From NCBI RefSeq assembly GCF_015159595.1, contig NZ_CP063304.1:2790001-2854000 (forward strand): a stretch of 64,000 nucleotides of DNA. Reading direction: 5' to 3'. The notes beneath the pieces were generated by a model. That model was not told where the DNA came from. It searched no databases and saw nothing but the letters and a program-made list of their open reading frames with translations. This stretch comes from Blautia liquoris. GTDB taxonomy: Bacteria > Bacillota > Clostridia > Lachnospirales > Lachnospiraceae. Made by a program: the position numbers and the translations under genes. Below, in pieces: positions 6,830 through 27,281 of this stretch; positions within the stretch are counted from its first letter, which is position 1; each line of letters begins with the position of its first letter.

Positions 6830-7099
6830 TTAAGTAGCTTTGCAAAACCTCTCTGGTAACCCATACTGTTCTCTTATTTTCTTGATTTCCTCCGGAAGCA
6901 AAAGTTTATGCTTTCTACGATACTCATTATATGTATTCACCAGTGTTGTATTGTCTAATTCTTCGCAAAAAAACTCCTCACCACACTCTGCACATACAAG
7001 GATCTGAGCGTCTACATCACTAAAAAAATAGAGCTCCGGTGATTTTAATCTACTTAGGGACTTACAATTCCGTGAACCTGAGCTGCTCGAAAATATAAA
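6830..7099 (-). pseudogene. Fragment of an MqsA/Panacea-type antitoxin
   Basis: A short frame carrying CAECGEEF, a downstream YNEYRRKHK and PEEIKKIREQYG. The same order of features (CAECGSEV, YDQYRRKH-like, LLKIPEKYA) occurs in the N-terminal part of the antitoxin at 21746-22741, so this looks like a decayed second member of that family. It stops right after this segment and lacks the helix-turn-helix core and the C-terminal domain. It also lacks a credible start. No toxin partner is next to it. Treated as a remnant. Confidence 0.55.
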
Positions 7100-7103
7100 A
7101 TCA

Positions 7104-7973
7104 CTATATTTTATCACTGTATAAATCTTTATAACCTTCACCATATATCTCACTGGCACTTCCAATAATCAAAAAAGCTCTGGGATCTAACTTTTTTACA
7201 ATTTCCTCCAATTTAGGATATTGCTGTTTTCTTAGTACACATAAAATTACATTCTTATCTGTATTAGTATAAGCTCCTTGTCCCTTTAGATAAGTTACAC
7301 CTACTTCCAATTCGTTTAAAATACTATTTGTAATATTCTGCGTATAATCACTAACAATAAATACCATGTTAGCTTCATCTTTTCCATATAGTACGAGATC
7401 AAGAATCATGGAGTTTACCATTACAGCAATCCCGGAATACAACGCTATATCAAAATCACGAAATATAATGCCTGATAAAGACACTATAATAGTATCTGTA
7501 ATAAGATATATTTTCCCGGTTTTTAAGTACTTAAGTTTGCCGCGTAATAATTTTACAACAATATCTGAACCACCGGTTGTCGCTCCTGCTTTGAAAATAA
7601 TACCCATTCCAACCGCTACCAAGAATGCCCCACCTATAGCTGCAAGTAAAGAATTTTTTGTAATACTTTCTATTGTTGAAAACAGATTCGTAAACCATGA
7701 GATCATTACGATAGCAAAAGAAGTTGATATTATAAACTTTAACCCGAATTTCCAAAACCCTAGAAGTATCAAAGGAACATTTAATAAGAAAAACCATGTT
7801 CCCGTTTTTACCTTAGTAACATAATTTAAAATGATACATAGACCAGACAAACCTCCAGGTACCAGATTATTAGGTTCTAAAAAGAGACTAACACCCATAG
7901 AATAAATTGCAGCTCCCAAAACTATCCAGATATACCGTACGATTTTATAGGACATTAAACTTTTCATCTTCAT
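7104..7973 (-). CDS. YitT family membrane protein (DUF2179)
   Basis: A 289-residue protein with five to six predicted membrane segments in residues 1-195 and a soluble C-terminal DUF2179 domain (about 200-285). The motifs LFLEPNNLVPGGLSG and GATTGGSDI are typical of the YitT family. Function is not established for the family. It follows the GntR gene at 8017-8757 with 43 bases between, so it may be co-transcribed with the fructosamine locus, but whether it serves that pathway is unknown. Confidence 0.85.
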   Translation of the reverse strand: MKMKSLMSYKIVRYIWIVLGAAIYSMGVSLFLEPNNLVPGGLSGLCIILNYVTKVKTGTWFFLLNVPLILLGFWKFGLKFIISTSFAIVMISWFTNLFSTIESITKNSLLAAIGGAFLVAVGMGIIFKAGATTGGSDIVVKLLRGKLKYLKTGKIYLITDTIIVSLSGIIFRDFDIALYSGIAVMVNSMILDLVLYGKDEANMVFIVSDYTQNITNSILNELEVGVTYLKGQGAYTNTDKNVILCVLRKQQYPKLEEIVKKLDPRAFLIIGSASEIYGEGYKDLYSDKI

Positions 7974-17981: not shown

Positions 17982-18109
17982 GCTATTGTATAGATAGATA
18001 AAGAAATAACCATCCAAGGCGATTTAGCCTAGTTAAGTAGAAGATCCACCCAACTCGTCAAAGTTTAAGGGGTGGATTTTCTATGTATCTAATGACTAAT
18101 CATATACAT
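17946..18109. repeat. Copy A of a 160-bp dispersed repeat (small RNA, terminator, toxin 3' end)
   Basis: Nearly identical to 61682-61841 over about 160 bp, apart from a TAGA duplication and scattered changes. It contains a promoter, a short RNA, a terminator-like hairpin and, on the other strand, the last codons of the 29-aa peptide gene. Copy A continues into the full peptide gene, copy B does not. Confidence 0.85.
17961..18082 (+). ncRNA. Candidate antitoxin RNA of a type I toxin system
   Basis: Promoter TTTACA (17961-17966), 17 bases, TATTGT (17984-17989) would give an RNA of about 85 bases from near 17996. It ends at a hairpin (CCACCC pairing with GGGTGG, then TTTTCT) near 18082. It runs against the peptide gene at 18089-18178 and would share its 3' region with that transcript, as in convergent type I pairs such as txpA/ratA. 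Its first part resembles the leader of the peptide mRNA (both contain ATTTAGCCT), so an inverted repeat flanks the gene. Confidence 0.5.
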
Positions 18110-18178
18110 GAATGTCAATAGTGCCAGAATAAATATTCCGAACTGAATAAGATCATTAAAATCAAATGAGTTCTTCAT
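18089..18178 (-). CDS. 29-aa membrane peptide, type I toxin-like
   Basis: A short gene with a strong ribosome site (GGAGGTGG, five to six bases before the ATG). The product is one hydrophobic helix (LIQFGIFILALLTFMYMI) with a charged N-terminus, the form of the small holin-like toxins of Firmicutes. A promoter TTGCGA-N17-TAGGAT lies at 18247-18275, giving a leader of about 65 bases. A convergent small RNA lies at its 3' end. Function is inferred from size, form and the antisense RNA. Confidence 0.6.
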   Translation of the reverse strand: MKNSFDFNDLIQFGIFILALLTFMYMISH

Positions 18179-18246
18179 ATTGCACCACCTCCATTCTTTG
18201 AAAAAATGAAGGCTAAATCCACCTTGGTATGGCTATTTCTATTTAA

Positions 18247-18275
18247 ATCCTATCACAAAATTTAGTCATTCGCAA
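18247..18275 (-). promoter_or_regulatory. Promoter of the 29-aa peptide gene
   Basis: Minus strand TTGCGA (18270-18275), 17-base spacer, TAGGAT (18247-18252). The leader that follows holds a small hairpin built on AAGG and CCTT arms, similar to one in the convergent small RNA. Confidence 0.5.
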
Positions 18276-18395
18276 TTAATAACTGTGAAGTTCTGAATCC
18301 GGTCCAGGCAGATCTGTACATTCCCTATATATTTTTATCCCCCAAAATTTCAAAATCACCTTTAAAGAGATTAACAAAGATTCCACTGGCCTGAG

Positions 18396-18656
18396 ATGAT
18401 GTATAAAGGGCAGCGTTCTGATATGGGATTTGTTAATGGATTACTTGGAAATCGTCCGAAAGACCCCAGACTTCAAGATGCCTTCCGTGAAGCAGAAAGG
18501 CGATATTGATATGTCAGGTATTTTGTCACCCACAGCCGGAAAATCGAAGCTTTTATAAAAGAGAATCTAAACGCATGCCGTGGTGGATTGTGTACAACTC
18601 CTTACGGGAAACGACTTGCCAGGGAACAGGAAGTATGTGATAACTCCAGGGCATGA
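18396..18656 (+). pseudogene. Possible remnant gene with an in-frame TGA
   Basis: A frame from ATG at 18396 reads RSDMGFVNGLLG, DAFREAERRY, then TGA, then continues in frame (THSRKIEAFIKENLN, PYGKRLAREQE) to a stop at 18654. The composition looks coding on both sides of the TGA. I do not recognise the family, and no ribosome site is seen. Could be chance. Confidence 0.25.
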
Positions 18657-18796
18657 ATAGAAACAGGCTGGTAGGTGAGTGACCATGTCAATTTCAAGTC
18701 ACTGAGTAAATTCATCGAACTTTTGTTCGATTTTTATTGCATTTTCTTCTTTCGTATGTTATCATCTGATAAGAACATACATTCGAGGTTTCGCAT

Positions 18797-20269
18797 ATGA
18801 AAATTTTATCAGATGAACTATCCTTGCAGGAAAAACTGAATATTCTCGCAGACGCCGCAAAGTATGATGTGGCCTGTACCTCCAGCGGAGTAGACCGCAG
18901 GGGACAGAAAGGAAGCCTGGGCAATTCCTGTGCTGCAGGAATCTGCCATAGCTTTGCCTCAGACGGAAGATGTATCTCACTTTTAAAGATTCTGCAGAGT
19001 AATGAGTGTGTTTATGACTGCAAATACTGTCTGAACCGCTCCAGTAATGATCGCGTGCGGGCTACCTTCAAGCCGGAGGAAATCTGCCAGCTGGTAATAG
19101 AGTTCTATCGGCGGAATTACATCGAAGGTCTGTTCTTAAGCTCCGGTGTGTGTAAAAATCCCACCTATACCATGGAATTAATGTACCGCACCCTTTATCT
19201 TTTGCGTAACCAATATCATTTCAATGGTTATATCCATGTAAAAGCAATTCCAAATGCTCCCGGAGAGCTTTTGGAACAGGTGGGATATCTGGCCGACCGC
19301 ATGAGTATCAATCTGGAACTTCCTACAGCGGAAGGATTGAAAGAACTGGCACCTCATAAAACACAGACAGCCATATTAAAACCCATGGGGCAGATACAGC
19401 ATCGAATCGCCGATTATCGTCTCTCTATCGGAAAAGACTCCCGTATGGAGCGAAGCAGCCAAAACCGCTATCTTTCCGACAGCATCTTTGATAGCTCTCC
19501 AAAATATATCAAAGAAAATCATCAGTACCCCCAAGTAAGCACTTTCCATCCCCCCCAAGCAGAGAAGCCGGCCCCTTTTGTGCCGGCCGGGCAAAGTACA
19601 CAGATGATTATCGGTGCCACAGAAGAGAATGATTATCAGCTTCTGACTACTTCTCAGCAGCTATATCAGCAATACGACTTAAAAAGAGTTTTTTACTCCG
19701 CTTATGTTCCATTGAACGAAGATGCGAATCTCCCGCCGCTTGACACTCCCCCTCCTCTTTTACGGGAACACCGCTTGTACCAGGCCGATTGGCTGCTACG
19801 TTATTATGGATTTCATGCCGAGGATCTGCTCAGCATGGACCGTCCGAATTTCAATGTCTTCCTAGATCCCAAGTGTGACTGGGCACTGCGTCATCTGGAA
19901 CAGTTCCCGGTGGAAATTAACCGGGCTGACTACGCTGCCCTTCTGAAAGTCCCCGGGATAGGTACCAAGTCAGCAATGCGGATTGTTAAGAGCCGGCGCA
20001 CCGGAGTTCTTACCTTTGATTCTTTAAAAAAAATAGGTGTTGTATTAAAACGCGCGAAATACTTTATTACCTGTCAGGGCAAGATGATGTATCATATAAG
20101 GATTGATGAAGACTTCATCACACGCCAGTTAATTGGTGAGGATTACCAGAAATCCTGGGACATTGATCATCCCGGCTCCTACAGGCAGCTATCTCTGTTT
20201 GATGATCAGATGTTTCAGATACAGCCCGATACGACCGATGTGCAGCAAACAGTTTTCGGGCAGCTTTAA
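18797..20269 (+). CDS. Radical SAM protein linked to DNA repair (TIGR03916-type)
   Basis: 490 residues. The 4Fe-4S motif is CVYDCKYC (Cys71, Cys75, Cys78), which binds S-adenosylmethionine for radical chemistry. GICHSFASDGRC precedes it, as in the putative DNA modification/repair radical SAM family. A helix-hairpin-helix, LLKVPGIGTKSAMRIVKSR, near residues 375-395 points to DNA binding. It is followed 19 bases later by its usual partner, a DUF4130 protein. The chemical reaction has not been established for this family to my knowledge. Confidence 0.88.
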   Translation: MKILSDELSLQEKLNILADAAKYDVACTSSGVDRRGQKGSLGNSCAAGICHSFASDGRCISLLKILQSNECVYDCKYCLNRSSNDRVRATFKPEEICQLVIEFYRRNYIEGLFLSSGVCKNPTYTMELMYRTLYLLRNQYHFNGYIHVKAIPNAPGELLEQVGYLADRMSINLELPTAEGLKELAPHKTQTAILKPMGQIQHRIADYRLSIGKDSRMERSSQNRYLSDSIFDSSPKYIKENHQYPQVSTFHPPQAEKPAPFVPAGQSTQMIIGATEENDYQLLTTSQQLYQQYDLKRVFYSAYVPLNEDANLPPLDTPPPLLREHRLYQADWLLRYYGFHAEDLLSMDRPNFNVFLDPKCDWALRHLEQFPVEINRADYAALLKVPGIGTKSAMRIVKSRRTGVLTFDSLKKIGVVLKRAKYFITCQGKMMYHIRIDEDFITRQLIGEDYQKSWDIDHPGSYRQLSLFDDQMFQIQPDTTDVQQTVFGQL

Positions 20270-20288
20270 CTCCCAGGAGGTATTTTAT

Positions 20289-21041
20289 ATGACAATTTTT
20301 ACATGCTTCGATCAATTTGAAGATATGATGACCTGTATTTATGATGCCTGGGATTCTAAACTTGGACATAAAAATATCCGGCTGCTCACGGAACCAGTCG
20401 GAAATCTGGAATTATTCTGCGACTATCTTCATGTCGATGCAGATAAGAGGAAAACTGTCAGTGTCATCAACTCCATACAACATAAAATATCTTTTGAAGC
20501 CTATCAGATGGTCTTTCGCTGCGCCATGTCTCAAGTTCCAGATAAGTTGGACGTGATATACCGTTTTCTGCTTTTTGGTTTTACTTACGGCAGCAAAGTT
20601 GTGAATATGCTTCAAATTCCGGCTGTTTCCGCAATTTTTGAAGTGAACAGAAGCGTCCTTAATGAATCTCATCAGTTTCAGGAATTTCTGCGTTTCACCC
20701 TTATGCAGGATGGTGTATTGGTGTCCCATATTGAACCTCGTTCTGATATCCTGACTTTTCTGGCACCACAATTTGAGGATCGCATGCCCTCAGAAAACTG
20801 GATGATTATAGATGACAACCGAAAAACAGCTGTCGTTCATCCCAGAAATTCCGAGTTTTATCTTACCTCTCTTTCAAAAGAGGAATTTGACCGTATAAAA
20901 AGCCTGGAAGACAAGTCAGATCCATATGTGGAGCTTTGGAAAGGCTTTTTTGAAACTATTGGAATCAAAGAACGAAAAAACTACAAATGTCAGAGAAACC
21001 ATATCCCCTTATGGTGCCGGAAACACGTAACGGAATTTTAG
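20289..21041 (+). CDS. DUF4130 putative DNA repair protein (TIGR03915-type)
   Basis: About 250 residues. The start at 20289 (MTIFTCFDQFEDMM) has CCAGGAGG upstream; the longer open frame overlaps the radical SAM gene without need. YTCYDGSFEGLL-like beginnings and the C-terminal KNYKCQRNHIPLWCRKHVTEF are typical of the family, whose members often carry a uracil-DNA-glycosylase-like part fused or nearby. Here no glycosylase domain follows. It forms a two-gene operon with 18797-20269. Confidence 0.85.
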   Translation: MTIFTCFDQFEDMMTCIYDAWDSKLGHKNIRLLTEPVGNLELFCDYLHVDADKRKTVSVINSIQHKISFEAYQMVFRCAMSQVPDKLDVIYRFLLFGFTYGSKVVNMLQIPAVSAIFEVNRSVLNESHQFQEFLRFTLMQDGVLVSHIEPRSDILTFLAPQFEDRMPSENWMIIDDNRKTAVVHPRNSEFYLTSLSKEEFDRIKSLEDKSDPYVELWKGFFETIGIKERKNYKCQRNHIPLWCRKHVTEF

Positions 21042-21193
21042 TTATTTTCCAGCAGATATTGATATATCTCGGGCAAATCTTCTGGCAGGCAGCTCTGATA
21101 GAGTAATTGCCGTAAGTGACCTACTCCCACCACTTAAATCTCATGATTTTGAAGTGAGGGCTTCCTGTTCAATAGCCCCAACGGGCTAAGTAT

Positions 21194-21478
21194 CTACAGG
21201 CTATCCCCCGTGTGCCCCACGGTTTTTGCTCGGTTACGGGCCTGCCTATGTATCATCAGAATATAGAGCATTAGCCCTTCGAATGAACACATAACGGTCC
21301 ACGGCTGCGCCTTTTTGACTGCAGTTTCAAAGCTGGATAAATATATTTCTCTAAGTCTTCTTTCATTATTGGTGGTCGAGCCGCCGATTGCAATAGAAAT
21401 GTCCGTAAATCCGCGTTCCAGGGCATCTTTTATCAATTCTCCAGTTTCATAAGTTGTGGTGTTCCCAGGGTTCCTCAA
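21194..21478 (-). pseudogene. Glycerate kinase fragment
   Basis: The stretch [16 protein letters not shown] and [12 protein letters not shown] matches the central part of glycerate kinases (GlxK/GarK type), where it reads GTGELI and IGIGGSATND. The conserved GGSATNDGG is altered and the protein soon loses similarity, so the gene is broken at both ends. A second short frame upstream on the same strand (to 21681, ending [11 protein letters not shown]) is also fragment-like and unrecognised. Confidence 0.55.
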
Positions 21479-21636
21479 ATTCTCCTTTTCTGCATCAGTT
21501 CTTTTGCTTTACTGTATCTCCGTTCGCAAAAATTGTCAAATACATCTCCCTCTTTTAAGCGATTCGCCTTTCCGATTTCTTCGTTGAACCATGTTTTTAA
21601 ACCCCTAAAGTAAGGAAAGATAATAAGAAATGAACA

Positions 21637-21692
21637 TAAAGAGAACCTTGGAAGAATCAGCCTTTTTACCAGATTCCTCAAGGGTTCTCTTT
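21637..21692. terminator. Long terminator hairpin
   Basis: TAAAGAGAACC and GGTTCTCTTTA form an 11-base outer stem that continues inward imperfectly (GGAAGAATC with GATTCC). T-rich on the plus strand after 21690. It lies 54 bases beyond the end of the antitoxin gene on the minus strand, so it may end that operon. Confidence 0.6.
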
Positions 21693-21745
21693 ATTTTTGG
21701 CTATGCGTACCCAAAATGGTCATTACCCGATAAGCACTTTGCGGT

Positions 21746-22741
21746 CTATATTTGCTGAAACATAGTCTGCGCATATTTTTTGATATCATTTGGATTAATC
21801 ATGTTATACTTTTCTTTCACCGCATTAAAATAGTTTCCAATCTGATCTTTCTGAATGGTTCTGTTATATGATACATTCTCTGGCAGTTCTCCTCTGGCTA
21901 ATATCCACGGTGACTCAGAATGTGTAAACTTCTCTAAAACTTTTCCACTATAGCAGCATATGTTTTTAGCAACGCTATCCAAAACAGCTTTTTCTGATGA
22001 GGAAAATTCAGAGTCATCACATCCACCGCTACTTTCAATTGAATCAAATCTATAATCACGATATCTATAATAAATGTCACGATAAACTGGTCCATGAATC
22101 CAGGCTTCACATTCTTCCGGAAATAAAAATGTTTTATAAAATGCATAATAAAACCCCTGAACATAATACAATGCCTTTTGTAACGCCAATGGTGTAATGT
22201 CCTGGCATCGGCAAAGCAAATACTCAATGCTCAGATCTATCTTATTGGCTCCATGTTCTTTCGCGCCCAGCAATGCACCGACAGCTTTTTTACTCTTTTC
22301 ATAAGCTTTTGCAGTTTTTAAATTCTGTTTGTTTTTCTCAAGCAATACATCATAATAGACAGGATCATTATTAATCTGTTTTAATGTGTCAGAATATTGT
22401 TTTGTTGGCATATCCCCATCACAATACCGTGAAAATGTTTGTTCCCCCCAACCCAGCAATAACGAAAGATTTCGTTTTCCAATTGCATATTTCTCAGGTA
22501 TTTTCAAAAGCTCATCCAGAGAAATAATATCATGTTTCTTTCTGTATTGATCATACAGTGCTCTTAAATTATAATCATTTATCTCATCCACATATACTTC
22601 AGATCCACACTCCGCACAATGGGCCTCTTTTCCCATATAAATATACTTCTCATCTTTAATCGTACCTGTCATTTGCTTTTCAATAACAGTATAAGATACA
22701 TCGTTTCTACATTCTTCACAAAATACTATTCTTTCATTCAC
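21746..22741 (-). CDS. MqsA-like antitoxin with C-terminal Panacea (DUF4065) domain
   Basis: About 331 residues. Two CxxC pairs (CEEC near residue 9, CAEC near 47) form an N-terminal zinc-binding part. A helix-turn-helix follows (KRNLSLLLGWGEQTFSRYCDG, near 95-115). The C-terminal half (from SIEYLLCRCQDITPLALQKALYYVQGF) is a Panacea/SocA-like domain. The GTG at 22741 is chosen because GGGAGG lies eight bases upstream. It follows a small MqsR-like gene by 26 bases. Toxin first, antitoxin second is the mqsRA order. Confidence 0.8.
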   Translation of the reverse strand: MNERIVFCEECRNDVSYTVIEKQMTGTIKDEKYIYMGKEAHCAECGSEVYVDEINDYNLRALYDQYRKKHDIISLDELLKIPEKYAIGKRNLSLLLGWGEQTFSRYCDGDMPTKQYSDTLKQINNDPVYYDVLLEKNKQNLKTAKAYEKSKKAVGALLGAKEHGANKIDLSIEYLLCRCQDITPLALQKALYYVQGFYYAFYKTFLFPEECEAWIHGPVYRDIYYRYRDYRFDSIESSGGCDDSEFSSSEKAVLDSVAKNICCYSGKVLEKFTHSESPWILARGELPENVSYNRTIQKDQIGNYFNAVKEKYNMINPNDIKKYAQTMFQQI

Positions 22742-22767
22742 AGTAATGCCTCCCTTCAATTCCCAAT

Positions 22768-23178
22768 TTACCTGAAAAGGTACTCAACCGGCTTGTTACG
22801 TTTATGAAAAGATATTACTACTGTCCTAATGCCACCAGGCAGATCAATCACATTAAACTTAGTATATACGTCCACAGTTTCTTCTTTACCATCCGCATGA
22901 AACAATTGGACCTGGGGAACAAAAACATATAAAACTTCATATTCATAACCGGGTTTTGTATTCTGTAGTGAATGGCAAAAATCCTCTGGTTTAATCTGGA
23001 GCAGAATGCTCTTTTGTCTATCACTTCGAATATTATACTCATTTATGAAGTTTATATTTTCCTGCCTGTTTTGATTTAATGCTATCGTAAACCTATTGTT
23101 ATCAATGCACTTTTTAATCTTATACAGGATTCTATTTATTTCTTCTCTGGTATAATTCTGATTATAATATGGATTCAC
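22768..23178 (-). CDS. MqsR-like toxin candidate
   Basis: 136 residues, unannotated at first sight. The C-terminal half (ILLQIKPEDFCHSLQN, then VDVYTKFNVIDL and TVVISFHKR) lines up with the MqsR mRNA interferase in the order of its helix and last strands. Located directly before an MqsA-like antitoxin gene. I infer a ribosome-dependent or free mRNA endoribonuclease of the RelE/MqsR fold. The similarity is weak, so a structural comparison is needed. Confidence 0.55.
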   Translation of the reverse strand: MNPYYNQNYTREEINRILYKIKKCIDNNRFTIALNQNRQENINFINEYNIRSDRQKSILLQIKPEDFCHSLQNTKPGYEYEVLYVFVPQVQLFHADGKEETVDVYTKFNVIDLPGGIRTVVISFHKRNKPVEYLFR

Positions 23179-23344
23179 TGCATCACCTCTTTGTAATACA
23201 ATGATACTTTATTATATGCTCTTTGTCAATAATTATGTACTAATTGATACATTCATAAAATGAATCTTGTGTCCAGTCCAACAATTGCAGCAATTACGGT
23301 TTCCTCATCTATACGATTACGACTTCCAAGAAGGTCACAGACTG

Positions 23345-23545
23345 TTATATGCCAGATTTCCTGCCACCAGGCCTGTCCCTGTTGTCATAAACCATTGCAG
23401 TACCTAAATCTGATGTTCCAAACAATACAGGCGTTAACAGGATAATTACAACTGATATGATAAAATGTACAATAAAATTATGTTTCAGATTAACTTTCGC
23501 TATCTTCCATATCTGCAAATGTTTTTTTAGCTTTATCATATTCAT
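23345..23545 (-). pseudogene. Start of an ABC-2 type permease subunit, truncated
   Basis: The frame begins MNMIKLKKHLQIWKIAK and enters a membrane segment (FIVHFIISVVIILLTPVLF), the form of ABC-2 exporter subunits. After about 50 residues sense is lost. It overlaps the end of the preceding permease gene, as paired subunits often do. Confidence 0.5.
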
Positions 23546-23897
23546 TCAACTTGCCCCTCCTTTTCCGTTCGTAGATTAAGACTGTTACAAACACCAGTAA
23601 CAAGGCAAATCCCGTAAATAATAGCCTGTTAGCAACAAGATTACTAAAATTGTCAATAAAAACCTGTGTCAGTTGCAATGAATTGTGGCGTGGGGATAAA
23701 CTAAACAGAGGATAACCGCCCTTTATACTTTGAATACCTAAATTCATGTCTATAAACCACCATAATCCTTGAACAGCAATGGCAATCGGTGTATTTGTAA
23801 GCTCGGTTAATAACATTCCTACTGCGGACGAAACCATTACAGATGGCAACACCCACCCAAAGCAATATTTCAAAGGAGCAAAGTAGTCAAGCATCAT
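23490..23897 (-). pseudogene. C-terminal part of an ABC-2 type permease
   Basis: 135 residues with three membrane segments (YCFGWVLPSVMVSSAVGMLL, IAIAVQGLWWF, LLFTGFALLLVFVTVLI) and a charged tail (YERKRRGKLNEYDKAKK). Too short for a whole ABC-2 subunit, which has about 230 residues, and no ATPase is nearby. Probably the surviving end of an export system such as those for peptides. Confidence 0.5.
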
Positions 23898-24055
23898 ACC
23901 GTCCTTCTATAAGAAGCCACATACTATATTCTCCTTCTTTGTTGGAAATAACTTTAGTCATTTCACAAACGACTAAAGCTTCAACTTTTATCTAAATTAA
24001 TTTTTGTTCATCTCTAAATATGCTTTCGTAAGATATCCTGCATTTTCTTCTGTAC

Positions 24056-24097
24056 AAAGAACCGCACCAGAGATGTAATTCTCCAGTACGGTTCTTA
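24056..24097 (-). terminator. Terminator after the first GH31 gene
   Basis: AAGAACCG at one end pairs with CGGTTCTT at the other, and the stem goes on inward (ACTGGAGA with TCTCTGGT). The right-hand repeat at 53188 starts inside the loop of this hairpin, so that copy has only half of it. This shows the left copy keeps the original downstream flank. Confidence 0.75.
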
Positions 24098-24142
24098 TCA
24101 TTACAAACTTTTATGTATGTTCTTTTTAAGGATCAGATAATT

Positions 24143-26395
24143 TTATTCCATTTCTACAGAAATCTCCTGATTTCCCAGTACTTCATAACTCCAGTTTCCA
24201 ATACCGCCTTCCACATGTAGAAAAATCGTTTTGCCTTTTCTTTTGACATGTACAGTCATGACTGCTTTGCCGCTTAAATCTGTAACCTCAGTACTGGCAG
24301 AAGCTCCCTCGTCAAAGATAGAAAGGCACAGCTTTACACCATCACAATAATCATAATCCGGCTTTGTATCGCAGCTTCCCACAGCCAAAATCGAGTTTGG
24401 ACGTACCAACAGCGGCAATGAGAAGTAATCATGTATCTCTTTTTTCCACTTTCCTCCTATGACCACATCCCCAGTCAGCAGGTTCACCCACCTGCCCTCC
24501 GGAAGATAATATTCCACCTCCCCGGACTCCTTAAATACTGGTGCCACCAGAAGAGAATCTCCGAACATATACTGCTTGTCTGGTGTTTCACAGGCCCTGT
24601 CTTCCGGAAATTCTACAAACATGGGGCGCATCATCGGTATCCCCTCCTCGTGAGTCTTCACCGCCTGCCGGTAAAGATAAGGCATCAGCGCGCATTTCAG
24701 TTTTACAAACTTTCGCAGGACATCGCAGGCCTCCTCGTCAAAAAGCCATGGCACCCGGTAAGAAGATGAGCCATGAAGCCGGCTGTGGGAACTTAAAAGG
24801 CCAAACTGACACCATCTCTTGTAGATATCTGCAGGAGCTGTCTTCTCAAATCCGCTGATATCATGGCTCCAGAACCCAAATCCCGCACAGGCCAGGGATA
24901 ATCCGCTGCGGATGGTCTCTGCCATAGATGGATATGTTGCCGAACAGTCACCGCCCCAGTGAGCAGGAAACTTCTGTCCTCCCACGGTTGCGGAACGGGC
25001 AAACAATACAGCCTCGCCTTCGCCACGCTCACGTTCTAACAGCTCGAATACAGCCTGATTATATAACTGTGTATAATAATTATGCATTTTCACAGGCTCA
25101 GATCCATCATAGTAGGCAATGTCTTTTACCGGAATTCGCTCACCGAAATCCGTCTTAAAACAGTCTACTCCCATATCCAGAAGCTTTTTCAGTTTATCCT
25201 GGTACCATGCACTGGCTTTTGGATTTGTGAAATCCACAAGTCCCATTCCAGCCTGCCACATATCGGTCTGCCATACATCACCATTTGATTTTTTAACTAA
25301 ATATCCCAGCTTTGACCCTTCCTGAAACAGCGGTGATTTTTGTCCAATATACGGATTGATCCACACACAGATCCTCAGCCCCCGGTCATGATAACGTTTC
25401 AGCATCCCTTCCGGGTCTGGAAATGTCGCAGGATCCCATGTGAAGTTGCACCATTCATACGCCTCCATCCAATAACAGTCAAAATGAAACACATGTAACG
25501 GAATATCACGATCCGCCATTCCCTGAATAAAGCTGCTGGTTGTATCCTCATCATAGTTCGTCGTGAAGGATGTGGTCAGCCAGAGGCCAAAAGACCAGGC
25601 CGGCGGCAGTGCGGGTTTTCCGGTCAGCTCCGTATATCTGGCAATAGTCCCCTTCGGTGTATGCCCATTGATAACATAATAGTCCAGTCGTTCTCCTTCG
25701 ACCGAAAACTGCACCCGCTCTACTTTCTCACTGGCTATCTCATAGGATGCATCGCCCTCATTGTCCAGCAGCACACCATATCCTTTATTGGTGATATAGA
25801 ATGGAACATTCTTGTAGGCAATCTCACTGGCTGTGCCGCCGTCCTCATTCCACATCTCCACAACCTGTCCATTCTTGATAAATGGTGTAAATCGCTCTCC
25901 TAGGCCATAAACATATTCGTCAACATCCAGCGAAAGCTGATCCACCATATAGCATCGATTGGTCTTATTATTTGTCATATGCGCTATATTGCGAAATCCC
26001 GTGTTTGTAAGTTCTCTCTCTTTATCCATAAAGCGTATGCCCCAGGAATCAGGCCGCTTATCTATGATTGCCTTGGTACTTCCACTCTTATAGATAATAC
26101 TATCTTCTGTTTCTTCGATTGTCACATGTGGAGCGGTATGCTTCACCTGTGCAAAAGGACCCTTGTAGGCGGTTCCTTCAAAGTGGGACACAGATACCTT
26201 GATCACATCCTCCATGGGACTTGTCAGCCGGATGGTAATCATGCCCAGATTCAGGCAGTCTCCTCTGTCGGAAATATGCTTTCCCGGTGCATATACGATC
26301 AGTTCATCGCCGTTTATCCGGCTGTCACAATACTCTACTGCATAAAGCGGTGTAATCTCTTTCTTCACACACCAATATCCATCTGTAAATTTCAT
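24143..26395 (-). CDS. yicI: Alpha-xylosidase, GH31, YicI-like (left copy)
   Basis: About 750 residues, cytoplasmic. The catalytic nucleophile Asp is in KTDFGERIPV (near 415) and the acid/base Asp in HWGGDCSATYPSMAE (near 480). GFGFWSHDISGFE and LLSSHSRLHGSSSYRVPW are nearly as in Escherichia coli YicI, which removes alpha-xylose from isoprimeverose-type sugars. The ATG at 26395 is used; the frame extends six codons to a TTG. Two permease genes lie upstream. This copy differs from the right one at scattered residues, mainly the last 50. Confidence 0.92.
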   Translation of the reverse strand: MKFTDGYWCVKKEITPLYAVEYCDSRINGDELIVYAPGKHISDRGDCLNLGMITIRLTSPMEDVIKVSVSHFEGTAYKGPFAQVKHTAPHVTIEETEDSIIYKSGSTKAIIDKRPDSWGIRFMDKERELTNTGFRNIAHMTNNKTNRCYMVDQLSLDVDEYVYGLGERFTPFIKNGQVVEMWNEDGGTASEIAYKNVPFYITNKGYGVLLDNEGDASYEIASEKVERVQFSVEGERLDYYVINGHTPKGTIARYTELTGKPALPPAWSFGLWLTTSFTTNYDEDTTSSFIQGMADRDIPLHVFHFDCYWMEAYEWCNFTWDPATFPDPEGMLKRYHDRGLRICVWINPYIGQKSPLFQEGSKLGYLVKKSNGDVWQTDMWQAGMGLVDFTNPKASAWYQDKLKKLLDMGVDCFKTDFGERIPVKDIAYYDGSEPVKMHNYYTQLYNQAVFELLERERGEGEAVLFARSATVGGQKFPAHWGGDCSATYPSMAETIRSGLSLACAGFGFWSHDISGFEKTAPADIYKRWCQFGLLSSHSRLHGSSSYRVPWLFDEEACDVLRKFVKLKCALMPYLYRQAVKTHEEGIPMMRPMFVEFPEDRACETPDKQYMFGDSLLVAPVFKESGEVEYYLPEGRWVNLLTGDVVIGGKWKKEIHDYFSLPLLVRPNSILAVGSCDTKPDYDYCDGVKLCLSIFDEGASASTEVTDLSGKAVMTVHVKRKGKTIFLHVEGGIGNWSYEVLGNQEISVEME

Positions 26396-26453
26396 TGCCT
26401 TTCCCTCTCTCAATCTAAGTTAATCATGTGGTCAGTAGATTTTCCGGACGCGC

Positions 26454-27281
26454 TCATCCCTTAACAGAGCCGGCCGATACCCCTCCGACAATGTATTTCT
26501 GTCCCAGTACAAATACCAGAAGGACCGGTGCGAGCGTCAGTATAATGTCTGCAGCAACCAGGTTCCAGGAGTTTTCGAATGCGCCAAAGAAGTTATAGAC
26601 TGCCAGTGTCATCGGCCATTTTTTTGAATTGTTCAGATAATACAAAGGCATGGTGAAATCGTTCCACACCGCCATAAAATCCAGAACAAACAGTGTTGAC
26701 ACAATGGGCTTTAGCAACGGAGCAATTACTTTGACAAAAAGCTGCCACGGCTTGCACCCGTCAATTACAGCCGCTTCATCAATTTCTCTCGGAATCGTCT
26801 CTACAAACCCGTAAGCCAGGAACAAGCTCAGCGGAATATTAATGGCGGCATAAAGCAGTATAATTCCAATTCTTGTATTCACGATATGGAATGACTGCAT
26901 AACCTTCATAAGTGCAACATTGTTAATCGGCATCGCAATACCTGAAATGATGAAATAATAAAGAAAACGGTTAACACCTTTATTGTTTCTCGAAATCACG
27001 AACGCAGCAGCACCTACAACAACAACGATGATGACTACACTACAAGTGGAATATAAAAAACCATTGAGAAATGCGGACACCAGCTTCCCCTGTTCTATGA
27101 CGGTCGCATAATTTTCAAACACCCACTTTGTCGGCAGAGAAAGAGTCATCCTGTTTGCTTCAGCAGAGGTCTTAAACGAGTTCAGGAATAAAACTACAAG
27201 CGGTATAATCACCACAAGGCTGATAAAAACCGATACAATATTACCGATTAGATGTCCAACAATCTTACCTGTTTTTCCCAT
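26454..27281 (-). CDS. ABC xyloside permease, MalG type (left copy)
   Basis: 275 residues with six membrane helices, EAA loop EAAVIDGCK followed by PLLKPI, ending GSVKG. Identical in protein sequence to the right copy at 55570-56397. Start overlaps the stop of its partner by one base. Its partner here is truncated, so this copy probably cannot form a working importer unless it pairs with the product of the right copy. Confidence 0.88.
   Translation of the reverse strand: MGKTGKIVGHLIGNIVSVFISLVVIIPLVVLFLNSFKTSAEANRMTLSLPTKWVFENYATVIEQGKLVSAFLNGFLYSTCSVVIIVVVVGAAAFVISRNNKGVNRFLYYFIISGIAMPINNVALMKVMQSFHIVNTRIGIILLYAAINIPLSLFLAYGFVETIPREIDEAAVIDGCKPWQLFVKVIAPLLKPIVSTLFVLDFMAVWNDFTMPLYYLNNSKKWPMTLAVYNFFGAFENSWNLVAADIILTLAPVLLVFVLGQKYIVGGVSAGSVKG

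What the first reader, a model, noticed from the sequence alone, without database searches (positions are those of the whole stretch)
21746..23178. MqsR-like toxin with an MqsA-Panacea fusion antitoxin
The antitoxin joins a zinc-binding, helix-turn-helix MqsA-type front to a Panacea domain, known as a general antitoxin module. The upstream 136-aa gene keeps only the C-terminal pattern of MqsR, so it may be a divergent toxin family.
Basis: partly seen in the sequence, partly recalled or inferred. Interest (0 to 1): 0.5.

Follow-up and report, generated by a model that had tools for sequence, protein, structure and literature searches.

The report
Bacterial self-poison pair, MqsR type
Two neighbouring genes look like an intact toxin-antitoxin pair, a probable RNA-cutting toxin of the MqsR kind and an antitoxin that adds a Panacea domain to an MqsA front; that combination has been tested before, but this toxin branch is diverged and the pair shares a likely DNA control site with its relatives.

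Summary
Window 22768-23178 (-) encodes a 136-aa toxin; 21746-22741 (-) encodes a 331-aa antitoxin with an MqsA zinc front, an HTH and a Panacea domain. Pfam does not recognise the toxin alone, but its model covers all 97 residues of E. coli MqsR (3hi2_B, Z 10.9; next row 6.2), and its family profile finds 11 of 13 MqsR-scoring loci. The antitoxin adjoins the toxin in 63 of 65 loci; nine have a broken toxin beside a full-length antitoxin frame. The architecture is already tested: Bacillus fungorum MqsR_D2:PanA (Ernits 2023, passages). Additions here: E. coli's catalytic Lys56 is His69, while an invariant His125 stands where E. coli has Lys96; a candidate operator, TGYAYYAATTRRTRCA, precedes the -35 box and occurs once in the genome, its core recurring at 17 of 29 distant loci; natural domain variants (one antitoxin without HTH, one with a nucleotidyltransferase instead of Panacea). 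Most likely a type II module: RNase toxin, zinc-front neutralisation, HTH autoregulation, Panacea as sensor. Function is inferred, not tested. New member of a known kind.

The parts
22768..23178 (-). toxin gene, GTG start, 136 aa, MqsR fold; codons of Y105 (22864-22866), H125 (22804-22806), H69 (22972-22974)
   Evidence: ORF; model pLDDT 83; 3hi2_B Z 10.9, 97 of 97 residues; profile links; residues
21746..22741 (-). antitoxin gene, probable GTG start, 331 aa (longer TTG frame to 22759)
   Evidence: model pLDDT 89.7, pTM 0.54
22547..22741 (-). antitoxin residues 1-65, zinc-binding front with C8, C11, C42, C45 (inferred neutraliser)
   Evidence: cysteines invariant in 18 of 18; loose fits to MqsA: 3ga8 Z 5.2, rmsd 4.9, 66 aligned; 3hi2_A Z 4.9, rmsd 5.5
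22334..22534 (-). antitoxin residues 70-136, HTH (inferred autorepressor)
   Evidence: HigA2 5j9i_B Z 9.8, MqsA C-terminal domain 3fmy Z 8.0, rmsd 1.8, 65 aligned
21905..22183 (-). antitoxin residues 187-279, Panacea (SocA) domain
   Evidence: PF13274 E 2.4e-17; only PF13274 match at E <= 0.001 in the genome
23236..23251 (+). 16-bp dyad TGTACTAATTGATACA, candidate operator
23201..23229 (-). sigma-70-like promoter: -35 TTGACA 23229-23224, 17 nt, -10 TATCAT 23206-23201
   Evidence: 11 of 12 consensus matches, the best of 12 sites found in the region where shuffles give 9.5 sites; a TTGAC box follows the dyad in most close relatives
23184..23190 (-). ribosome-binding site AGAGGTG of the toxin
   Evidence: read from the sequence
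22749..22754 (-). ribosome-binding site GGGAGG of the antitoxin
   Evidence: read from the sequence
21633..21697 (-). inverted repeat (26-nt arms, 85%) after the antitoxin, possible terminator
   Evidence: not picked up by the terminator scan

Best explanation
A type II toxin-antitoxin operon of the MqsR:PanA kind, probably laterally acquired and apparently intact. Shown by computation: two-gene order, MqsR fold of the toxin, ZBD-HTH-Panacea antitoxin, conserved pairing with close antitoxins, conserved dyad at the promoter. Inferred: the toxin is an RNase whose active site centres on Tyr105 and, in this branch, probably His125 rather than the Tyr/Lys pair of E. coli MqsR; the zinc-binding front of the antitoxin covers the RNA-binding surface and keeps it inactive; the HTH dimer binds TGYAYYAATTRRTRCA just upstream of the -35 box and represses the operon; Panacea does not neutralise but senses a trigger (possibly phage infection) and releases the toxin, which stops translation.
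For: Fold: 3hi2_B (E. coli MqsR) Z 10.9, rmsd 2.3, 97 of 97 residues, next row Z 6.2. Homology: the A1 profile finds 11 of 13 loci with a PF15723 match at E <= 0.001 (8 of the 13 over Pfam's cut-off), at E 6.6e-10 to 0.0082, best unrelated frame 0.96; hhalign probability 98.6 against 8 MqsR sequences. Tyr105 aligns with E. coli Tyr81 and is invariant in 33 of 33 and 18 of 18; Y81 and K56 are essential in E. coli and Y97 in B. fungorum MqsR. Antitoxin domains. Pairing: 63 of 65 toxin loci; 20 of 20 viral antitoxin loci, 14 of them contigs already seen with the toxin. Toxin broken with a full-length antitoxin frame in 9 loci. Dyad: 49 of 67 upstream regions within 1 mismatch, shuffles 0.01%; one place in the genome. 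B. fungorum: ZBD alone neutralises, Panacea alone does not.
Against: No toxicity, RNase or binding test was possible. The window toxin has no Pfam hit, and only 7 of 33 relatives touch PF15723 at E <= 1, best 0.0034, in a list with chance families. Foldseek alone did not show MqsR among its top 50 rows. Against E. coli MqsR alone hhalign gives probability 9, E 0.0037. The E. coli catalytic Lys56 is absent. The ZBD fit to MqsA is loose (3ga8 Z 5.2, rmsd 4.9). Beyond close antitoxins the pairing fades: of 30 antitoxin-like loci from the order, 9 of 11 with E < 1e-50 but only 3 of 19 weaker ones (many of them sharing one domain only) have a toxin found by the A1 profile. The dyad is absent or weak at 11 of 67 loci (four or more mismatches), and its core at 12 of 29 distant ones (two or more).
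Confidence: 0.85

Rival explanations
1. The toxin keeps the MqsR/RelE fold but has another target (for example tRNA, the ribosome or a protein), so it is an MqsR-fold toxin rather than a GC-type mRNA interferase.
For: Catalytic Lys56 is replaced (His69 here; other residues in distant relatives) and Lys96 is His125; an insert of about 10 residues (around 92-101) is absent from E. coli MqsR and from the PF15723-scoring relatives aligned; the RelE/ParE fold can serve RNA cleavage or gyrase inhibition (passage).
Against: Tyr105, which aligns with the catalytic Tyr of E. coli MqsR, is invariant, and a Tyr is also needed in B. fungorum MqsR; 10 of the 11 PF15723-scoring frames found by the profile share the SFH motif, the other having SVH.
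Confidence: 0.2
2. Panacea, not the zinc front, neutralises this toxin, or both are needed.
For: Panacea neutralises directly when it stands alone (abstract passage); L010 keeps ZBD and Panacea but lacks the HTH.
Against: In B. fungorum ZBD-HTH-Panacea the ZBD alone suffices and Panacea alone fails; L076 has a nucleotidyltransferase domain in place of Panacea beside an MqsR-like frame.
Confidence: 0.12
3. The pair is a relic: the toxin is inactive and the antitoxin survives as a plain repressor.
For: 9 of 64 toxin loci (doubtful L012 left out) have broken toxins; a gene fragment lies beside the pair; the genome holds another MqsA remnant at window 6830-7165.
Against: Both window frames are full length, and pN is below pS in all comparisons, which speaks for the family more than for this copy.
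Confidence: 0.07

Closest known systems
Bacillus fungorum and Lactobacillus rossiae MqsR_D2:PanA (Ernits et al. 2023, PMC10440598; passages seen)
   Same: MqsR toxin with a PanA partner; B. fungorum PanA has ZBD-HTH-Panacea; predicted catalytic Tyr (Y97) required for toxicity
   Different: Their sequences were not compared here; no operator for this pair was seen in the passages; the window toxin alone is below Pfam detection
E. coli MqsR:MqsA (3hi2, 3gn5)
   Same: Toxin-first operon, toxin fold over the full length, catalytic Tyr, zinc front, HTH
   Different: Panacea added; Lys56 to His69 and Lys96 to His125; insert of about 10 residues; candidate operator TGYAYYAATTRRTRCA instead of AACCT-N3-AGGTT (start of abstract of PMC4894380 in a listing)
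PanAT network (Kurata et al. 2022, PMC8832971; passages seen)
   Same: Panacea antitoxin; MqsR-like was the commonest recognised toxin domain (n = 90 of 1,268 putative toxins)
   Different: Herbaspirillum MqsR there was not rescued by its PanA; membership of this family in their clusters could not be checked (supplements not readable)

Membership tests
MqsR:PanA (Panacea-containing MqsRA) | Toxin with MqsR fold and homology | tested here: met
   3hi2_B Z 10.9, 97 of 97 residues; profile links. Direct Pfam search of the window toxin found nothing.
MqsR:PanA (Panacea-containing MqsRA) | Antitoxin ZBD (CxxC...CxxC) followed by HTH | tested here: met
   TIGR03830 over cut-off; four Cys invariant in 18 of 18; HTH 3fmy Z 8.0; zinc binding itself not tested
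MqsR:PanA (Panacea-containing MqsRA) | C-terminal Panacea domain | tested here: met
   PF13274 64.3 vs 25.7 bits
MqsR:PanA (Panacea-containing MqsRA) | Two-gene operon, conserved pairing | tested here: met
   63 of 65 toxin loci; 20 of 20 viral antitoxin loci and 9 of 11 close antitoxins of the order
MqsR:PanA (Panacea-containing MqsRA) | Catalytic Tyr of the toxin | tested here: met
   Y105 invariant in 33 of 33 and aligned to E. coli Y81
MqsR:PanA (Panacea-containing MqsRA) | Toxicity and neutralisation | not testable with these tools
   needs experiment
Classical E. coli-type MqsRA | Catalytic pair Tyr81/Lys56 | tested here: not met
   Tyr kept, Lys56 is His69; not filed here
Classical E. 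coli-type MqsRA | Antitoxin of ZBD and HTH only | tested here: not met
   Panacea present
Type VI SocAB (proteolytic adaptor) | SocA equivalog score | tested here: not met
   NF047745 39.6 bits against a cut-off of 190

The most novel reading that the evidence does not exclude
This is a distinct MqsR branch that has moved from the noncanonical Tyr/Lys chemistry of E. coli MqsR to a Tyr/His site (Tyr105 with invariant His125, Lys56 lost). It is governed by an MqsA-type HTH whose half-site (TATCA/TGATA) is preserved across Bacillota MqsR modules, while the C-terminal sensor domain is exchangeable (Panacea or nucleotidyltransferase) and the HTH itself can be lost.
Probability: 0.4. Interest if true: 0.5.

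Novelty: new member of a known kind. Interest (0 to 1): 0.3.

Why it matters
A toxin that Pfam misses on its own turns out to be a full-length MqsR fold, so other 'hypothetical' partners of MqsA-Panacea proteins may be nameable the same way. It supplies a test of what Panacea does when it is not the neutraliser: the toxin, the neutralising front, the likely repressor site and natural domain variants are all defined, so the postulated sensor role can be tested by swapping or removing domains. The dyad gives a cheap way to recognise these operons and to measure autoregulation.

Tried and rejected
Direct searches with the single toxin gave nothing in Pfam, NCBIfam and PADLOC, a chance ribosomal L29 row in PDB sequences (E 1.2), and nothing in viral contigs or phages. 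The A1 profile against PDB sequences found nothing. Foldseek against PDB listed NTF2-like and CaMKII hub folds at E 0.06 and worse, without MqsR among the 50 rows shown of 917; rejected as a common helix-plus-curved-sheet arrangement because the VIA re-alignment of the same candidates puts MqsR first by a wide margin. BFVD gave one row under E 0.001, A0A8S5T535, named HTH-type regulator, TM 0.59/0.63; not followed. phiKZ gp29PR matched 7 of 33 members at best 0.0026, as many as MqsR; treated as chance, since the fold search and the partner gene do not support it. L012 (22 bits, 287-aa frame, no antitoxin) was treated as not a relative. An 11-bp palindrome TTGTATTACAA at the start site was dropped: 4 of 47 upstream regions have that form. 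For one search I gave 67 upstream regions; L006 and L012 were left out. Its shuffles, like those, keep single-base composition only, and the pattern was read off 47 of the 67; of the other 20, 9 are within 2 mismatches (three of these near-identical). pS exceeded 1 in some pairs, a sign of saturation, so no dN/dS value is quoted.

Full report
WHAT IS THERE. The minus strand carries a 136-aa gene (22768-23178, GTG, AGAGGTG ahead of it) followed 26 nt later by the antitoxin gene, whose probable start is GTG 22741 (331 aa) rather than TTG 22759. A sigma-70-like site with 11 of 12 consensus matches lies at 23229-23201, the best of 12 found where shuffles give 9.5, and a 26-nt inverted repeat follows the antitoxin. 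The region is AT-rich (32-36% GC in the bins of 21500-23999, 36-52% in the other bins of 18000-26999). It sits between a putative DNA-repair radical-SAM pair (TIGR03916/TIGR03915) with a glycerate kinase fragment on one side and a GH31 gene on the other. By DNA similarity none of the other 5 genomes of the genus has the pair; two of these five are under 80% complete.

ANTITOXIN. It passes the MqsA subfamily cut-off (63.5 vs 61.8 bits), though Pfam's MqsA model is just under its own (28.3 vs 30), and it passes SocA_Panacea clearly. The AlphaFold model (pLDDT 89.7, pTM 0.54) has MqsA 3gn5 as its only Foldseek matches under E 0.001. It re-aligns to the MqsA C-terminal HTH (3fmy Z 8.0) and HigA2 (Z 9.8), loosely to the MqsA zinc domain (3ga8 Z 5.2, rmsd 4.9), and over the Panacea part to chain B of the DarTG complex 7yk3 (Z 7.3, rmsd 4.8, 125 aligned), which for a helical domain may mean only a common arrangement. 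C8, C11, C42 and C45 are invariant in 18 of 18. It is the only PF13274 match in the genome.

TOXIN. Alone it matches no Pfam or NCBIfam model. Relatives: 12 of 295 genomes of the order, own included and L012 doubtful; 35 loci in species genomes; 14 in viral contigs; 4 in plasmids. The closest (up to 82% identity) are in records labelled Lachnospiraceae, Eubacteriales or unclassified, and others at 65-68% in records labelled Gardnerella, Spirochaetales, Pelotomaculum and Desulfotruncus. This points to lateral spread, although several are metagenome assemblies. The model (35 sequences, pLDDT 83) re-aligns to E. coli MqsR 3hi2_B with Z 10.9, rmsd 2.3, 97 of 97 residues, the next row being Z 6.2; plain Foldseek did not show MqsR in its top 50. 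PF15723 searches matched 3 of 245 genomes of the class and 9 of 398 of the phylum at E <= 0.001, 13 loci in all, 8 of them over Pfam's cut-off. The family profile recovers 11 of the 13 (E 6.6e-10 to 0.0082; best unrelated frame 0.96), each beside a frame that matches the antitoxin profile; the two misses, L070 and L078, are two halves of one locus. Profile-profile comparison with 8 MqsR sequences gives probability 98.6; with E. coli MqsR alone only 9.

ACTIVE SITE. In E. coli MqsR Tyr81 and Lys56 are essential for cleavage, and Lys96 is among the residues needed for toxicity (PMC9636575, PMC2791442; passages). Tyr81 aligns with Tyr105, invariant in 33 of 33 and 18 of 18. Lys56 aligns with His69, which varies in relatives (His in most close ones; Tyr, Gly, Glu, Lys and others elsewhere). 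Lys96 aligns with His125, invariant in 33 of 33 and present in 17 of 18, E. coli being the exception. A Tyr/His site is therefore plausible; this is inference from alignment.

PAIRING AND DECAY. Of 65 loci with a toxin match (own copy and near-duplicates included), 63 have the antitoxin adjacent; L003 ends at a contig edge (an antitoxin lies at the edge of another contig of that genome) and L012 is doubtful. All 20 viral loci found with the antitoxin alignment have the toxin; 14 of these contigs were already and 6 are new, three of the six sharing the same toxin score and upstream sequence. In the order 59 of 295 genomes have some antitoxin-like match. Of the 30 loci taken, 9 of 11 with E < 1e-50 have the toxin (misses: L105 at a contig edge, L114 truncated), but only 3 of 19 weaker ones, many of which share only one domain. 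So the pairing holds for close antitoxins, while Panacea and MqsA domains travel with other genes too. Nine toxin loci (L005, L006, L036, L038, L040, L042, L045, L046, L047) have stops, frameshifts or truncation in the toxin while the antitoxin frame is full length, which fits a gene that is costly without its partner. Two distant antitoxins show modularity. L010 has ZBD and Panacea but no HTH, in frame (an assembly error is not excluded). L076 has a ZBD-HTH front fused to a nucleotidyltransferase domain (Polbeta 7.6e-9; MntA model below its cut-off) beside an MqsR-like frame (PF15723 25.0 vs 26.2 bits).

OPERATOR. Upstream of the -35 box lies TGTACTAATTGATACA (23236-23251). Of 67 upstream regions, 35 match TGYAYYAATTRRTRCA exactly, 14 with one mismatch, 6 with two, 1 with three and 11 with four or more; in shuffles 0.01% reach one mismatch. 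Many of the 67 are close relatives and some near-identical (41 distinct sites among 56). The pattern was read off 47 of them; of the other 20, 9 are within two mismatches, as 0.5% of shuffles are. In the 3.52-Mb genome the motif occurs at this one place, and the reversed control at none. In 29 more distant loci the core TATCA-NN-TGATA is found with at most one mismatch in 17, against 2.1% of shuffles; part of this set suggested the core, so the test is not fully independent. E. coli MqsA reads AACCT-N3-AGGTT (start of an abstract). Five exact forms of the dyad occur in no paper of the searched library; supplements were not searched.

PRECEDENT AND MECHANISM. Ernits et al. 2023 tested B. fungorum MqsR_D2:PanA: ZBD-HTH-Panacea, ZBD sufficient, Panacea insufficient, Y97 needed, and proposed Panacea as a sensor; L. 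rossiae MqsR_D2:PanA was also validated (passages). E. [quoted passage not shown] The same scheme is the best reading here. A library search for MqsR with Panacea returned 5 papers, of which Ernits 2023 and Kurata 2022 are central.

VERDICT. An ordinary kind of system with three useful additions: a diverged toxin branch assigned to MqsR by fold and profile, a conserved candidate operator, and natural domain variants.

Noticed in passing
   Followed up: partly
   Followed up: partly
window 6830-7165 (-): Remnant of a second MqsA-type front (TIGR03830 1.5e-9, 37.7 bits, below the cut-off of 61.8); the genome has no second copy of this toxin.
   Followed up: partly
window 21194-21478 (-): Frame starting with a glycerate kinase fragment (PF02595 1.9e-9, residues 2-37), the rest without a Pfam match; looks like gene debris next to the pair.
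   Followed up: no
window 23350-23398: 49-bp stretch identical in one genome of the genus and 80% identical in another, while the rest of the 2.4-kb query has no match there.
   Followed up: no
L050, L051 (Clostridioides difficile plasmids): Distant copies of the pair follow a very large gene of unknown function (about 6.2 kb) on plasmids of 127-132 kb.
   Followed up: no
window 18797-21041 (+): Radical SAM protein TIGR03916 with its DUF4130 partner TIGR03915, named as putative DNA repair proteins.
   Followed up: no
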